Origin: Rugalucina vietnamica
Taxonomy: Eukaryota; Mollusca; Bivalvia; Lucinida; Lucinidae
DNA: 64,000 nucleotides
NCBI GenBank assembly: GCA_964017185.1
Contig: OZ024876.1
Location: forward strand, 28,116,278-28,180,277
Direction of reading: 5' to 3'
The notes under the pieces were generated by a model that ran no database searches, was not told the DNA's origin, and was given only the letters and a program-made list of their open reading frames with translations. Every line of letters begins with the position of its first letter. Position 1 is the stretch's first letter. Shown piece after piece: positions 3,156-33,615 of the stretch. The position numbers and the translations under genes are program-made.

Positions 3156-4367
3156 ATGGAGAATGTTGAAGTGAGAGCGGTGATAAAATATCTTTGTAAG
3201 AAGGGAATTACTCTCAAGGAAATTTACGAAGACTCCATGAAAACACTTGGGAATGAGTCTCCTTCCTATAGCACGGTGTAAAAATGGGCTGCAGAATTTA
3301 AGCGGGGGGGAGAGAACATTGAGGATGATGAAAGGTCTGGCCGCCCCAAAGATGCCAACACGGATGAAATTGTAGAGAACCTACAAAACCTGGTTATATG
3401 TGACAGGTGGCGAGACTTACGAAGTATAGCCAGCGGAATCGGCATACGTTTTGGGGCAGGGCAAACAATTCTAACGGATATCTTGGGTGTGTCCAAGGTC
3501 TTGGCAAGATGGGTACCGAGAATGTTGACTGATGACCAAAAACGATCTCGGCTTGATATTTCTAGGTATCTCCTGTCTCGCTATGAAGATGATCCCGGTA
3601 AATTTTATCGACCGAGTTGTAACCCAAGATGAGACATTGGTTCATCACTTTGACCCAGAGTCGAAAATGCAAAGTATGCAATGAAAGAACCCTGGCTCAC
3701 CCCCTCCCAAGATGTTTAAGAGAGTTTCTTCTGCAGGGAAGGTGATGGCCTCAGTCTTTTGGGATAGTCAGGGGGTAATTACGTTTCATTATCTTGAACA
3801 AGGTCGCACGATAAATGGTGCATATTATGCAGCAGAATTGAGGCGCTTGCGCCAGGAAATTGCAAGAAAGAGGAGAGGAAAATTGACTCGATGTGTTCTG
3901 TTCTTGCAGGGGACAATGCGCCTGCTCACACGTCGCAAGTCGCCATGACTGCTGCGAATGAATGCGGATTCGAAGTCCTTCCTCATTTCCCATATTCTCC
4001 TGATATAACCCCGTCTGACTTCTAACTGTTCCCAAAATTGAAATTCAACGTTCGTGGAACACAGTTTGGAAGCAATAAAAAGGTACAAGTAGGCAAAGAT
4101 CAGGAAAAGGCGCAATCAGAAAAAGATTCCCACTCCAAAAACCGAGGTGGGAAAAAACCAAACTAACAATCAGGTACATAGACCATGAAACAAATCGTAA
4201 GCCGAATGATCAGCTATTTTCCCAATAGGTGGCCACTCAGTTACATAGCGGCAGTGAACGAGTATTTAGAGGACCAGGAAAGGGACTTCTATTTGGAAGG
4301 GATGAGCAAGCTCGAACAGAGATGGAATAAGTGCATTGCATTGAAGGGGGATTATATTGCAAAGTAA
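3156..4367 (+). pseudogene. Mariner transposase, inactivated
   Basis: Translating in shifting frames gives a mariner transposase. It has an N-terminal helix-turn-helix region (residues about 5-60, with YLCKKGITLKEIYEDS), the linker ERSGRPK, and a catalytic domain. The catalytic triad is visible: D in TQDETLVHHF (codon 3628-3630), D in DNAPAHTS (3912-3914) and D in SPDITPSDF (4017-4019), with 34 residues between the last two, so it is DD34D. The C-terminus EQRWNKCIALKGDY matches the family. Breaks seen: a stop replacing Tyr near 3279, a frameshift near 3603, a stop near 3682, a frameshift near 3910, a stop near 4023, and the SA insertion before the last ~45 residues. It cannot make a full protein. 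The start is the first ATG of the conserved N-terminus. Confidence 0.9.
4075..4245 (-). mobile_element. SA retroposon fragment inserted in mariner
   Basis: The reverse complement matches the last ~170 bp of the SA copy at 1919-2282, including the segment with CATTCGGCTTAC and the 3' end CTTGTACC. It interrupts the transposase between the conserved GTQFGSN-like and AVNEYLEDQ stretches. Part of the middle of SA is altered. A clear target duplication is not seen. Confidence 0.75.
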
Positions 4368-5426: not shown

Positions 5427-8032
5427 TAGCTCACCTGAGCCGAAGGCTCACAAGGTGAGCTAATAGGATAGCCATGATCCGGCGTCCGTCCGTCGTCCGT
5501 CGTCCGTCGTCCGTCGTCGTCCACAATTTCAAAGATCTTCTTCTCTGAAACCGCTTGGCCAATCTAGTTGAAATTTTATGTGGAGCCTCCTTGGGTAGTG
5601 GCATTTCAAGTTTGATCGCGAAATCCAGGTCACATGACCAAGATGGCCGCCACGCCCATATATGGTAAAAACCACTCAAAAATCTTCTTCTCCAGAACCG
5701 GTGGGCCGATTTCCACGAAACTTGGTATGTAGCATCGGGGATGTCAGCCCATCATAGTTTGATAAAATGATGACCCCTGGATGACCTTGAATTATTTTAC
5801 GGCAAGGTCAAATTTGGAAACATAGGCTTTTACATGGGAAAAAGTGAAAACTATGGATTTTTGGAAAACTATTGCAGCCTGAGGCCTGAAAAGTGGTAGA
5901 TGCAAACAACTTATGGAGTAGATGAAGGTATGTGATTAATATAGGTCAAGGTCATCTCTTGACCTTGGCCAGTCTGTCGTCCATACACACTTTTCAAAGA
6001 TCTTCTTCTCTGAAACTGCTTGGCCAATCAAAGTGAAATTTTATGTGGAGCATCCATGGGAAGGGGATACGAAAGTTTGATCGCGAAATCCAGGTCACAT
6101 GACCAAGATGGCCGCCACGCCCATATATGGTAAAAACCACTCAAAAATCTTCTTCTCCAGAACCCGTGGGCCGATTTCCACGAAACTTGGTATGTTGCAT
6201 CAAGGACCTCAGCCCATCATAGTTTGATAAAATGATGACCCTTGGATGACCTTGACTTATTTTACGGCAAGGTCAAATTTGGAAACATAGGCTTTTACAT
6301 AGGAAAAAGTGAAAACTATGGATTTTTTTAAAACTATTGCAGCCTGAGGCCTGAAAAGTGGTAGATGCAAACAACTTATGGAGTAGATGAAGGTATGTGA
6401 CTAATATAGGTCAAGGTCATCTCTTGACCTTGGCCAGGCTGTTGTCCATACACACTTTACAAAGATCTTCTTCTCTGAAACTGCGCGGCCAATCAAAGTG
6501 AAATTTTATGTGGAGCATCCATGGGTAGGGGAGACGAAAGTTTGGTCGCGAAATCCAGGTCACATGACCAAGATGGCCGCCACGCCCATGTATGGTAAAA
6601 ACCACTCAAAAATCTTCTTTTCCAGAACCGGTGGGCCGATTTCCACGAAACTTGGTATGTAGCATCAACGACCTCAGCCCATCATAGTTTGATAAAATGA
6701 TGACCCTTGGATGACCTTGACCTATTTTATGGCGAGGTCAAATTTGGAAACATAGGCTTTTACATAGGAAAAAGTGAAAACTATGGAATTTTTTGAAAAC
6801 TGTTGCAGCCTGAGGCCTGAAAAGTGGTAGATGCAAACAACTAATGGAGTAGATGAAGGTATGTGATTAATATAGGTTAAGGTCATCTCTTGACCTTGGC
6901 CAGTCTGTTGTCCATACACACTTTTCAAAGATCTTCTTCTCTGAAACTGCGCGGCCAATCAAAGTGAAATTTTATGTGGAGCATCCATGGGTAGGGGAGA
7001 CGAAAGTTTGATCGCGAAATCCAGGTCACATGACCAAGATGGCCGCCACGCCCATATATGGTTAAAACTACTCAAAAATCTTCTTCTCCAGAACTGGTGG
7101 GCCGATTTCCACGAAACTTTGTATGTAGCATCGGGGACCTCAGCCCATCATAGTTTGATAAAATGATGACCCCTGGATGACCTTGAATTATTTTACGGCA
7201 AGGTCAAATTTGGAAACATAGGCTTTTACATAGGAAGAAGTGAAAACTATGGATTTTTTAAAAACTATTGCAGCCTGAGGCCTGAAAAGTGGTAGATGCA
7301 AACAACTAATGGAGTAGATGAAGGTATGTGATTAATATAGGTCAAGGTCATCTCTTGACCTTGGCCAGTCTGTTGTCCATACACACTTTTCAAAGATCTT
7401 CTTCTCTGAAACTGCTTGGCAAATCAAAGTGAAATTTTATGTGGAGCATCCATGGGTAGGGGAGACGAAAGTTTGATCGCGAAATCCAGGTCACATGACC
7501 AAGATGGCCACCACGCCCATATATGGTAAAAACCTTTCAAAAATCTTCTTCTCCAGAACCGGCAGGCCAATTTTCATGAAACTTGGTATGTAGCATTTGG
7601 GACTCCAGCCCATCATAGTTTGTTGAAATGATGACCCTATGATGACCTTGACCTATTTTACGGCAAGGTCAATTTTGGAAACATAGGCTTTCACATGGGA
7701 AAAGGCGAAAACAGCTGTTGCAGCCTGAGACCTGACAGTTGCTAGATGCAGACAACTAATGGAGTCAATGAAGGTAAGTAATTAATGAAGGCCAAGGTCA
7801 TGACTTGACCTTGGCCCAAGGTCATTTAAATATCAAAATTAAAATTGTGGTTTTCTCAGAAATCACTGGGTTTGGAAACTATTGCAGCCTGAGACCTGAA
7901 ACTTTGCAGATGCAGACAACTTATGAAGTCAATAAAGGTGTGTGAGTATTCAAGGTCAAGGTCATTTCATTATGACTTAATACTCCAAGATCAGGCTTCA
8001 GGTGAGCGTTCTCAGGACCAATGGTCCTCTGG
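5427..8032 (+). mobile_element. HT element with five ~465-bp internal tandem units
   Basis: It begins TTAGCTCACCTGAGCCGAAG, whose first ~34 bp fold into a hairpin. It ends with CAGGTGAGCG followed by a small hairpin and GGTCCTCTGG. Internal units starting with TTTCAAAGATCTTC recur near 5527, 5991, 6456, 6922 and 7387, a pitch of 464-466 bp. Each contains CAAGATGGCCGCCACG and long GGTCA-rich tracts. The paralogous site (17441-17447) is empty. There is no coding capacity and no clear target duplication. Terminal hairpins and a tandem core resemble non-autonomous Helitron-type elements described in bivalves; that assignment is inference. Confidence 0.8.
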
Positions 8033-11866: not shown

Positions 11867-13835
<1,969 letters not shown>

Positions 13836-20470: not shown

Positions 20471-20749
20471 ACCGGAGTCAGAACGTTCGGACTTCTGATC
20501 CAGTACCGAAGTTCGGATCCGATTTTCCGAAAAGGAAGGTTGGCTGAAAATCAAAATGGTTAATATTTAGGAACATTTCCATTTATAGGATAAACGCGAT
20601 GACAAAATTACACAATTATATCGGTGCCATGTCTTGGTGAGTAAGTACCTGAAGGCTCACAGACTCGCTCCTTAAGATAGTCTATTAAACTAGTCAATCA
20701 TAATTGTCTAAAAATGTTCTCGGCATGTGCCATACACCATTACACCTAA
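20471..20749. other. Unassigned DNA after A2
   Basis: A GTTCGGA-rich stretch (20485-20530) contains a short imperfect palindrome. Nothing else is recognised. Confidence 0.4.
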
Positions 20750-21140
20750 TGTTACGTCTACACTGGGCCACGTTCTCCGTCCTTACCACGTCCTAAACAA
20801 TTAAGAACGTGACGAGGACGGGGTCAAAATGAAACAATTTCTGGTTTGTAAGTTCACATTACGTCCTCACTACGTCCCCACCACGTCCTTACTACGTCTC
20901 CACCACGTCCTTACTACGTCCTTCACGTTTCCACTAACCCCACACCAAGCTCATCCCGTTTACACTACGTCTTTACTACGTCCTCACGAAGACCATGCAG
21001 TTCACGCCACGCGCGTACTACGTTTTCAGCACGTTCTGTCTGTTTATGTTAATATAAGTGTGCTCAGTTGAAGAACGAGTACTGAAACTCCATCATCAAC
21101 GCTGCTAATAATCTGTTGTAATGTCCATAGTGAAGCCTTT

Positions 21141-21211
<71 letters not shown>

Positions 21212-21925
21212 TTTTCATAGATCATAGCTAGGGACGCACCCAGAAATATCTCACCCTACATTGCGAGTGCACCGAGTAAGTTTTGGTGTTATTGAAGGAG
21301 AGAGAATTGCAAGAGTATTTCTGCGTTCATTTTCTTTATTTCAACTGAACTCAACTCAATTTATTTGCAAAGCATATAACATTTAACATTTCAAAATGGT
21401 TGACGCGAAAGCTATTGCTTGAGGGAACGAGTCAACTAAAACAAAATTAATAAAAACGGGGAGGACGTGATAAAAACCTGATGCGAACGTGGTAAGAACC
21501 TACAGAGGACGTGTTGGGAACCGCCGGGACGTGATTAGAACGCAGTTAAGTCTTCTAGGACGTGGTATGGACGTACGAGAAGCTGGTAGGATCTTATCGA
21601 GAACCTGATGGACACAGCGCGGACGTAGTGAAGACGTAGTGAGGTCTTGGTGGTCTGCAAAAAGGTTCGTATACCACGTCCATGAAGACCTTACTAAATT
21701 TGCACTAGGTTCTTACTACGTCCTTACCACGTCCTTACTACGTCCTTATTGCGTTCTAATTCCACCCCGTTCTCGCCACGTTTCTTTTGAGCATGTTCAA
21801 AATTTGACCTTCACGTCCATCAAGACCTCGCTACGTCCTTACTACGTTCCTTCCACGTCCAACAAGACAACTTTTAAGCACGTAGTAAGGACGTGGTGGG
21901 AACGTGGTCCGGTGTAGACGTAACA
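20750..21925. mobile_element. Non-autonomous element built of CGTCC(T/A)TAC repeats
   Basis: Inverted ends TGTTACGTCTACAC (20750) and GTGTAGACGTAACA (to 21925) continue for about 45 bp as GGNCCACGTTC and similar. The subterminal 300 bp on each side are dense arrays of CGTCCTTACTA / CGTCCTTACCA-type 10-12 bp units, with the two sides in partly opposite orientation (GGACGTGGTA). The centre has (ATC)n at 21141-21209. No transposase is present. Frames at 20829-21071 and 21639-21917 are translations of the repeat. No clear target duplication was found. Confidence 0.75.
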
Positions 21926-21989
21926 ATAGGACTGATAAACTTTAAGATGTTTTTATAATTTTGTAAATGCATTTTTCATTTTATGCGTA

Positions 21990-22201
21990 TGAATGGCTCT
22001 TACGTTTTACTTGATGTACATTTTTGGGTTTGGGTGGCTGTGTGGCCACCTATTGGGAAATAGCTGCTTACTCGTTTTACGATATGTTTCTTAGTATACG
22101 TAAGTACCTAATTGTCAATTTAGTTTTCCCACCTCGATTTTTGTAGTGGGATTTCTCTCTGATTGTGCCATTTCCTGATCATTGCCTACTTGTACCTTTT
22201 T
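21990..22201 (+). mobile_element. SA retroposon, 5'-truncated
   Basis: Matches SA from the GTGGCCACCTATTGGG block to the 3' end GCCTACTTGTACCTTTTT. Confidence 0.8.
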
Positions 22202-31686: not shown

Positions 31687-32219
31687 AAAATATAAAGTTA
31701 TGTACCTCTGAAATAGGGATTATCTAATTATGATCAAGACATGAGACAATTGCACATTCGTTTGAGAAAATAAGTCTTTCAAAAGGAAAATTATCATGGG
31801 TGTGAATAAATCAAAAAAGGAGTTTCCCATTTTACTGGCACTGATCAAAGTCAGTCTACAACAAAATATGTGACTTTAAGCCAGAACATGGGAAACTTGA
31901 GGACAAAGACTGGAGCTTTTTCCAAGATTTTGTCTGTTACGTCAAAAGGATGTATACATGTAGCTGTGATGGGCGTGAATATGTTTGCAATTGAAGCTTC
32001 CCACCTTTCTTGGGGCTGACCGAAGTGATTTTTTAAAAATGTGAGACTAAGCCAGGACATGATAAACCTATTATGACATCCACAAGCAACTGTGATGACC
32101 AACCAATGTAGGTGTTTTCTCTTGACATTAAGAGCGAAAATGGAGGCAATATCAGCGTGTTACATCAAATACTAAAGCAATGGTGTGTAGGACAACCAAT
32201 AATATGGCAAGCCGTTTTA
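31685..32219. other. Unassigned DNA with an old ~172-bp tandem duplication
   Basis: 31797-31895 and 31969-32065 share the order GTGAATA, TTCCCA, CTGA..GAAGT, ATGTGA.T.AAGCCAG.ACATG. The minus-strand frame at 31851-32102 spans both halves; no known protein is recognised. Confidence 0.4.
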
Positions 32220-33613
32220 CTATTTATTATGCTTATTAGATATCCTGAATAGTAAATAAGATATCTTAATTAGGATATAAGATATCTTATTTAGCAATAA
32301 AGACATCTTCTTTATCAAAAAAGATATCTTATATCCTAAAGTAGATATCTTATATAGTAAAAAAGATATCTAGTACGCTAAATAAAATATCTTATTTGAT
32401 CCCACAATTAAGATATCTTATATAGCATATATCTTATTTGATAATTTAGATATCTACTATACCTAAATAAGATATCTTCTTTACATGATTAATTAAGATA
32501 TCTACTTTGGTAAATAAGATATCTTCATTGCTAAACTAGATATCTTAATTAGCAGACAAGATATCTTATATAGCAAATAAGATATCTAAATTGGTAAATA
32601 AGATATCTTATTTATAGTGGTAAATAAGATATCTTATTTAGGTATAATAGATATCTTATTTAATATATATGATATCCTATTTAGTATATTAGGTATCAAA
32701 ATTATCAAATAAAATATCTTGATTAAGGCTATAAATAAGATATCTGTATTGGTATAGTAGAAATCTTATATAAGTATCAGAAATTAATTGTGATTGGGTA
32801 AAACAAATAAGAAATCTTATATACTAAATAAGATATAATAGATATCTTATTTAATATATATGATATCTTATTTAGTATATTAGATATCAAAATAATCAAA
32901 TAAGATATCTTGATTAAGGCTATAAATAAGATATCTGTATTGGTATAGTAGAAATCTTATAAGTATCAGAAATTAATTGTGATTGGGTAAAACAAATAAG
33001 AAATCTTATATACTAAATAAGATATCTGATTTGTTAAACCGTAATAAGATATCTAATATAGGATATAAGATATCTATTTTTGTATATAAGATATCTTATT
33101 TGTCGAATAAGATATCTACTTTGGCATAGTAGATATCTTATTTGTGAATGCAATTAAGATATCTTATATGTTGAAGAAGATATCTTATTTGACAAATAAG
33201 ATATATTATATGATAAAATAGATATCTAGTATACTCTTTTAGATATCTTATATGTTAATTAAGATATCTTATTTAGAAAAAAAACATTATAGATATCTAA
33301 TTTATCATATTAGATATCTAATTTGTTAAACAAGATATCTTAATTAACTAATAAGATATCTTAAATGCTATATCAGATATCTATATTAATAATTAAGATA
33401 TCTTATATATTTTTACAAATAAGATATCTAATATATCAATCAAGATATCTTATTTGTTAATTTAGATATCTACATTAACAAATAAGATATCTTGTTTAGT
33501 TAAAAAGATATCTTATATACTATATAAGATATCTTAATTGACAATTTAGATATCTAATATAACAAAACAGATATATTATTTGCTATATAAGATATCTTCT
33601 TTATAATAGATAG
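32220..33613. repeat. Array of ~50 GATATC palindromes on a 21-bp pitch
   Basis: By hand count there are about 49 exact GATATC hexamers from 32239 to 33591, most inside TAAGATATCTTA, plus several one-mismatch versions that keep the phase. Consecutive sites are mostly exactly 21 bp apart (for example 32239, 32260, 32281, then 32323, 32344, 32365; and 33423 to 33591 in eight steps). Runs are broken by 26-bp steps at 32386, 32471, 32602, 32713, 32904, 33132 and 33397. A block of about 190 bp (32643-32833) is tandemly repeated. The outer edges show weak inverted repeats ACTATTTATTAT and ATAATAGATAGT next to TA. No family is recognised. Confidence 0.95.
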
Positions 33614-33615
33614 TA

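What the first reader, a model, noticed from the sequence alone, without database searches (positions are those of the whole stretch)
32220..33613. About 50 GATATC palindromes on a 21-bp pitch with half-turn slips
About 49 exact GATATC sites, usually within TAAGATATCTTA, occupy 1.36 kb; at this base composition fewer than one is expected. Most steps are exactly 21 bp, two turns of B-DNA, so sites face the same side of the helix. Runs of about 4-9 sites are separated by 26-27-bp steps, about 2.5 turns, which flips the face. The ~9-bp spacers vary while site and phase are kept, including in one-mismatch sites. This suggests selection or copying that maintains a lattice for a symmetric, dimeric DNA-binding protein, or a minisatellite with an unusual unit. 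I know of no described element with this design. Weak inverted ends next to TA raise the option that the array is cargo of a transposon.
Basis: partly seen in the sequence, partly recalled or inferred. Interest (0 to 1): 0.92.

Follow-up and report, generated by a model that had tools for sequence, protein, structure and literature searches.

The report
Transposon built from palindromic site lattice
The odd array is one worn copy of a jumping DNA element that appears to code for nothing and is built almost entirely of evenly spaced palindromic sites, probably where a protein grips it in order to move it.

Summary
The array is real: 49 exact GATATC sites, dominant 21-bp step, 26-29-bp slips. 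It is neither a plain minisatellite nor transposon cargo; it is the body of a non-autonomous DNA transposon. The copy spans about 32203-33612, its right end missing. The genome (1.09 Gb) holds 1921 matching ends (control 0). Complete copies have inverted ends TATGG..CCATA and exact 6-bp target duplications: 34 of 55 TIR pairings, 16 distinct duplications, 0 of 934 mismatched controls. Termini and TSD match those printed for IS3EU transposons (PMC12730594, PMC10045372; passages). Three families share a GATATC dyad, a roughly 20-bp palindrome and two spacings (20-22, 26-28 bp) but differ beside the dyad: A.T, G.C or T.A. Core bases are protected between several transposing lineages (strongest pair 3/291 versus 102/631) but decay freely among copies of one insertion (51/5433 versus 78/11178). 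That points to selection for mobility, not host function. Most likely the sites are a dimeric protein's binding lattice, probably the transposase's. A 123-bp copy with three sites also carries a TSD. No autonomous partner was found; that genome search did not complete.

The parts
32203..33612 (+). Family A non-autonomous transposon copy, right end missing
   Evidence: Aligns with copies elsewhere (window element 1-1332 to L203 1-1261; 86-1410 to L160; 120-1410 to L208); exact 30-base terminus at C8:28148480, which is window 32203
32203..32228 (+). Left terminus TATGGCAAGCCGTTTTACTATTTATT
   Evidence: 1921 ends genome-wide at <=2 mismatches, control 0
32239..33596 (.). Lattice of 61 palindromic sites, 49 with exact GATATC
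32643..32833 (+). First copy of an internal 191-bp duplication
32834..33024 (+). Second copy; differs by 4 substitutions (3 of them in the 8-bp core) and one 2-bp indel
33602..33615 (-). Apparent right inverted end; most likely a decayed lattice site at the break point
   Evidence: L160 has TTAGATATCTATTAT in the matching place

Best explanation
The array is the body of a non-autonomous cut-and-paste DNA transposon with IS3EU-type ends (TATGG..CCATA, 6-bp target duplication). Shown: mobility (TIRs plus TSDs), copy number, colinearity of separate insertions spacer by spacer, a two-state spacing rule in three families, and protection of the site cores between several transposing lineages but not among copies of one insertion. 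Inferred: each 20-bp palindrome binds a symmetric dimer, the regular spacing lets neighbouring dimers touch, and many sites per element improve capture by a limited pool of protein. Also inferred, with less certainty: that protein is the transposase of an IS3EU relative not seen here.
For: Ends: 969+952 matches, control 0; family D ends 62+72, control 0. TSDs: 34 of 55 TIR pairings, 16 distinct, 0 of 934 mismatched controls. IS3EU: 6-bp TSDs and ends TAYGG..CCRTA (PMC12730594, passages); TA..TA termini and usually 6-bp TSDs (PMC10045372, passages). Spacing (steps of 20-22 / 23-25 / 26-28 bp): A 272 / 2 / 43, B 243 / 2 / 74, D 43 / 0 / 12. The first and last site lie 34-36 bp from the terminus at 32 of the 34 ends of 17 complete elements; the exceptions are 57 (L234 left) and 53 (L243 right). 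Selection: L160 versus group consensus core 6/413, non-core 73/824, p 5e-8; 13 of 29 pairwise comparisons show core depletion at p<0.05 and none a significant excess; A/T-only change at W positions is commoner in L160+L208+L212 (33 of 47) than in the one-insertion group (9 of 24), p 0.011. No clear covariation across the dyad, which fits a protein reader better than base pairing. Family D places the sites subterminally on both sides of an unrelated interior.
Against: No transposase was recognised in any fetched locus (ORFs judged by eye; Pfam on ten of the longer ones gave reverse-transcriptase-type domains in four, one zinc-finger match below its cut-off, nothing in five), so the reader protein is unidentified. 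Window and L201 show no core protection and W changes there are not A/T-biased (2 of 7, 3 of 9; left out of the p value above); 16 of 29 pairs show no core depletion at p<0.05. I read these as post-insertion decay. A first test of the right half of window against L160 was weaker, core 9/269, other 26/511. The 29 pairs share sequences and are not independent, and core columns needed an exact core in at least one sequence, a mild bias. The three-site 123-bp element with a TSD shows that dozens of sites are not required.
Confidence: 0.72

Rival explanations
1. A minisatellite grew by slippage or palindrome-driven template switching inside a MITE; the sites have no function.
For: The 191-bp duplication shows that local duplication occurs. 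L213 has three left ends 1065 bp apart before one right end. Copies of one insertion decay evenly.
Against: Neighbouring units no more alike than distant ones; core changes 4-16 times rarer than others in the seven strongest pairs; the same two spacings in three families.
Confidence: 0.08
2. The sites bind a host protein (transcription factor or chromatin protein) that the element exploits, for example for expression, replication timing or an open insertion context.
For: Selection acts on the transposing lineage without naming the protein; three families with different bases beside the dyad could use different host proteins.
Against: Arrays start at a nearly fixed distance from the termini and are subterminal in family D, as expected of transposase sites.
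Confidence: 0.14
3. Selection is on DNA or RNA structure (cruciform, hairpin, nucleosome exclusion) rather than on protein binding.
For: Strong palindromy; of 9 B elements, 6 are self-complementary over nearly their whole length and 3 over part of it (72-80%); the bases flanking the core are almost pure A+T.
Against: No clear compensatory covariation across the dyad or spacer (the best dyad pair has p 0.03, not corrected for testing); invariant core bases rather than conserved pairing.
Confidence: 0.06
4. Host-level function (regulatory or centromere-like lattice) keeps the array in place.
Against: Core and non-core decay alike in 13 copies of one insertion (51/5433 versus 78/11178) and in the window's own duplication (3 of 4 substitutions in the core).
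Confidence: 0.03

Closest known systems
IS3EU / GingerRoot DNA transposons (PMC10045372 and PMC12730594, passages read)
   Same: TAYGG..CCRTA ends, TIRs over 30 bp, usually 6-bp TSDs
   Different: No transposase seen here; an interior made of a palindromic lattice is not mentioned in the passages read
Foldback-like transposons Galileo and Tetris (PMC3688188 abstract, outline and passages; PMC4079207 passages)
   Same: Long internally repetitive TIRs; extra transposase (THAP) binding sites within tandem repeats shown for Galileo
   Different: Three THAP sites reported for the Galileo-G TIR, two of them in long direct repeats; Tetris has 220-bp repeats. Here dozens of palindromes stand 20-28 bp apart and ends and TSD differ
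CACTA (En/Spm) and hAT subterminal motif arrays (recalled, no call)
   Same: Repeated short transposase sites near both ends
   Different: Recalled as fewer, partly dispersed, non-palindromic sites without a strict two-state spacing
Baculovirus hr enhancer/origin palindromes (recalled, no call)
   Same: Repeated palindromes with a restriction-site centre bound by a dimer
   Different: Viral, other motif; no viral gene stood out among the window's ORFs, judged by eye

Membership tests
Non-autonomous DNA transposon | Terminal inverted repeats | tested here: met
   in the window copy only the left end is present
Non-autonomous DNA transposon | Target site duplication at separate insertions | tested here: met
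   16 distinct exact 6-bp TSDs, 0 of 934 mismatched controls; the window copy itself cannot be tested
IS3EU | Ends TAYGG..CCRTA / TA..TA | tested here: met
   TATGG..CCATA against PMC12730594 and PMC10045372; some copies have AATGG at one end, and family D right ends read TATGAGG
IS3EU | Usually 6-bp TSD | tested here: met
IS3EU | TIRs longer than 30 bp | tested here: met
   The two ends of L161 agree at 41 of 44 positions
IS3EU | DDE (rve-like) transposase of the IS3EU lineage | tested here: inconclusive
   None recognised in fetched loci (Pfam on ten ORFs); genome search with NF033577 did not complete
Foldback transposon | Long inverted arms with internal repeats | tested here: inconclusive
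   Self-inverted identity 72-80% in B, but family A also gives 71-74%, as a palindromic lattice will; mirror test of slips about the midpoint negative in 6 of 6
Minisatellite | Adjacent units more alike than distant ones | tested here: not met
   lags 1-12, second copy of the 191-bp duplication removed
Galileo-like multi-site TIR | Transposase shown to bind the repeats | not testable with these tools
   no candidate protein

The most novel reading that the evidence does not exclude
A new architecture for a transposon's cis-acting signal: a cooperative nucleoprotein lattice. Dimers on 20-bp palindromes pack edge to edge at 0-2 bp (two turns) or step by about half a turn at 6-8 bp, so that almost the whole element is a docking filament. 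Three co-resident families have diverged in the base pair next to the dyad (A.T, G.C, T.A) while the spacing rule is kept, as if several transposase specificities evolved in parallel.
Probability: 0.35. Interest if true: 0.85.

Novelty: new variant of a known kind. Interest (0 to 1): 0.68.

Why it matters
Multi-site transposon ends are known, but why elements gather many sites is unsettled; the Galileo paper calls the function of its long repetitive TIRs uncertain (PMC3688188, passages). That makes stoichiometry, cooperativity and specificity change of a eukaryotic transposase testable. It also warns that a lattice with conserved sites and varied spacers can look like host regulation while being selfish.

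Tried and rejected
Viral relatives: 36 IMG/VR stretches hold three sites at 21 bp. I saw site counts for all 36 and sequence for four: L011, L016, L030 and L012. These four look like in-frame 7-codon repeats in coding DNA (by eye, no annotation called). The full site pair gave 0 viral matches, the terminus 0.

tRNA genes and Rfam: none reported. Papers: AAGATATCTT gave 41 papers, 20 listed, none evidently a repeat element by title; CEADQRLCFRY 0; terminus and site strings 6, unrelated by title. Topic searches: (listings). That I know of no printed element of this design rests on these searches of open-licence papers only.

One-sided ends L214, L215, L220, L236 gave no transposase by eye.

Full report
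Observation. The window holds 49 exact GATATC between 32239 and 33596, 61 lattice sites with 12 one-mismatch ones. Lag-21 identity is 0.578 against a mean of 0.344. Column counts over these 61 sites give a 20-bp degenerate palindrome, YAWWNWAGATATCTWNWWTR: an 8-bp core at 92-100% (inner six columns flattered by the way sites were picked), six W columns holding A or T with about 2% G/C, Y/R columns, and open N columns. Sites abut with 1 bp between them (21-bp step) or about 6 bp (26-bp step). Units share no neighbour similarity (lag 1 0.534, all pairs 0.526) and no clear covariation across the dyad or spacer (p 0.03-0.08 for a few dyad pairs, not corrected for testing). Helical phase is not kept over the whole array.

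It is a mobile element. After several unanswered calls the own-genome search gave 24,106 forward matches to three GATATC spaced by 10-20 bases, against 97 for the reversed-pattern control. L160, on another contig, aligns with the window at 85.8% over 1353 columns, spacers included, closely in the right part and with rearrangement in the left half. Ends of arrays share TATGG(GGT/CAA)GCCGTTTTACTATTTATT. That terminus occurs 969+952 times at <=2 mismatches, control 0; only the first 100 places are listed, all on contig C1, and I fetched 40 stretches chosen from them. Over the 57 loci examined, 34 of 55 possible inverted pairings have identical 6-mers outside, in 16 distinct sequences; 21 do not, partly because pairings across nested or neighbouring elements are included; mismatched controls gave 0 of 934. 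Elements with a TSD run from 123 bp to 2.8 kb, apart from the tandem L213. The window copy begins at 32203 and loses homology at about 33612, without a right terminus.

Family. Termini and TSD length match IS3EU as printed: TA..TA termini and usually 6-bp TSDs (PMC10045372, passages); 6-bp TSDs, TIRs over 30 bp, ends TAYGG..CCRTA in rust fungi (PMC12730594, passages). The transposase was not found; the search meant to find it (NF033577) did not complete, so membership rests on termini and TSD.

Three families, one rule. A (AGATATCT; window, L160, L201, L203, L208, L212), B (GGATATCC; for example L161, L224, L227, L228, L231) and D (TGATATCA; L160 4165-4606, L241-L244) differ next to the dyad and in the flanks. 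Steps fall in two modes: A 20-22 bp 272 times and 26-28 bp 43 times, B 243 and 74, D 43 and 12; 23-25 bp occurs 2, 2 and 0 times (6 A, 10 B and 2 D elements, sites with <=1 mismatch). A also has 18 bp seven times and a few odd values. In 17 complete elements (4 A, 9 B, 4 D) the first and last site lie 34-36 bp from the terminus at 32 of 34 ends; truncated copies such as L160 differ. In L242 and L243 the sites flank a non-array interior of about 0.9 and 2.2 kb, and a 123-bp D element has only three sites with TSD CTCTAG.

Selection on the transposing lineage. Thirteen A copies share flanking DNA on one or both sides and so probably descend from one insertion carried along by a larger repeat; among them core and non-core change alike (51/5433 versus 78/11178, p 0.11, slightly more in the core). 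L160, a separate insertion, differs from their consensus at 6/413 core but 73/824 other positions (p 5e-8); L208 and L212 show p 0.019 and 0.016; the window and L201 show none. Among 13 B and 16 A pairs, 7 and 6 show core depletion at p<0.05, up to 3/291 versus 102/631; 16 do not, mostly close pairs or pairs within the group. At W positions A/T exchanges make 33 of 47 changes in L160, L208 and L212 but 9 of 24 in the group (p 0.011); the window (2 of 7) and L201 (3 of 9) resemble the group. The choice of the three followed their core result. The window's 191-bp duplication agrees with free decay: 3 of 4 substitutions hit the core.

Mechanism. Shown: mobility, the spacing rule, and protection of the motif between several lineages that moved. 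The three-site element suggests that many sites are not essential and may serve competition for transposase or stable synapsis. Host function is unlikely because copies of one insertion are not protected.

Noticed in passing
window 20750-21925: Second TIR-bounded element (TGTTACGTCTACAC.., arms 90% over 31 nt) whose interior carries YACGTY/RACGTR motifs in both orientations, often 11 bp apart (23 + and 12 - within 20700-22000). Perhaps a second array-type transposon with a one-turn pitch; its TSD is unclear.
   Followed up: partly
window 3282-4022: Broken mariner/SETMAR-type transposase remnant, best match E 1.4e-54; with the 1.09-Gb genome this suggests an animal. The species is not known to me.
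   Followed up: partly
window 11870-13199: 350-bp unit in 3.2 copies (100% matches) flanked by long (TA)n runs.
   Followed up: no
window 5527-7712: 465-bp tandem repeat, 4.7 copies, next to a CGTCCGT repeat.
   Followed up: no
L202-L219 (13 copies): The family A element sits at the same place in a larger amplified repeat (flanks aaagttgtctccac / ctccacacaggtat or their complement, most copies on both sides), so it is spread by another repeat as well.
   Followed up: partly
L213 320-3722: Three left ends 1065 bp apart with the same flank, then one right end: tandem growth of a transposon towards a satellite-like array.
   Followed up: no
L166 1639-1683, L236: A further small repeat with TGATATCA and AGTCACTAGTGACT, not clearly part of families A, B or D.
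   Followed up: no
PMC8268682 table (passage): In Crassostrea gigas the satellites CgiSat35 and CgiSat47 are labelled DNA/IS3EU and CgiSat43 is listed with the number 21, apparently its unit length; sequences not seen.
   Followed up: no
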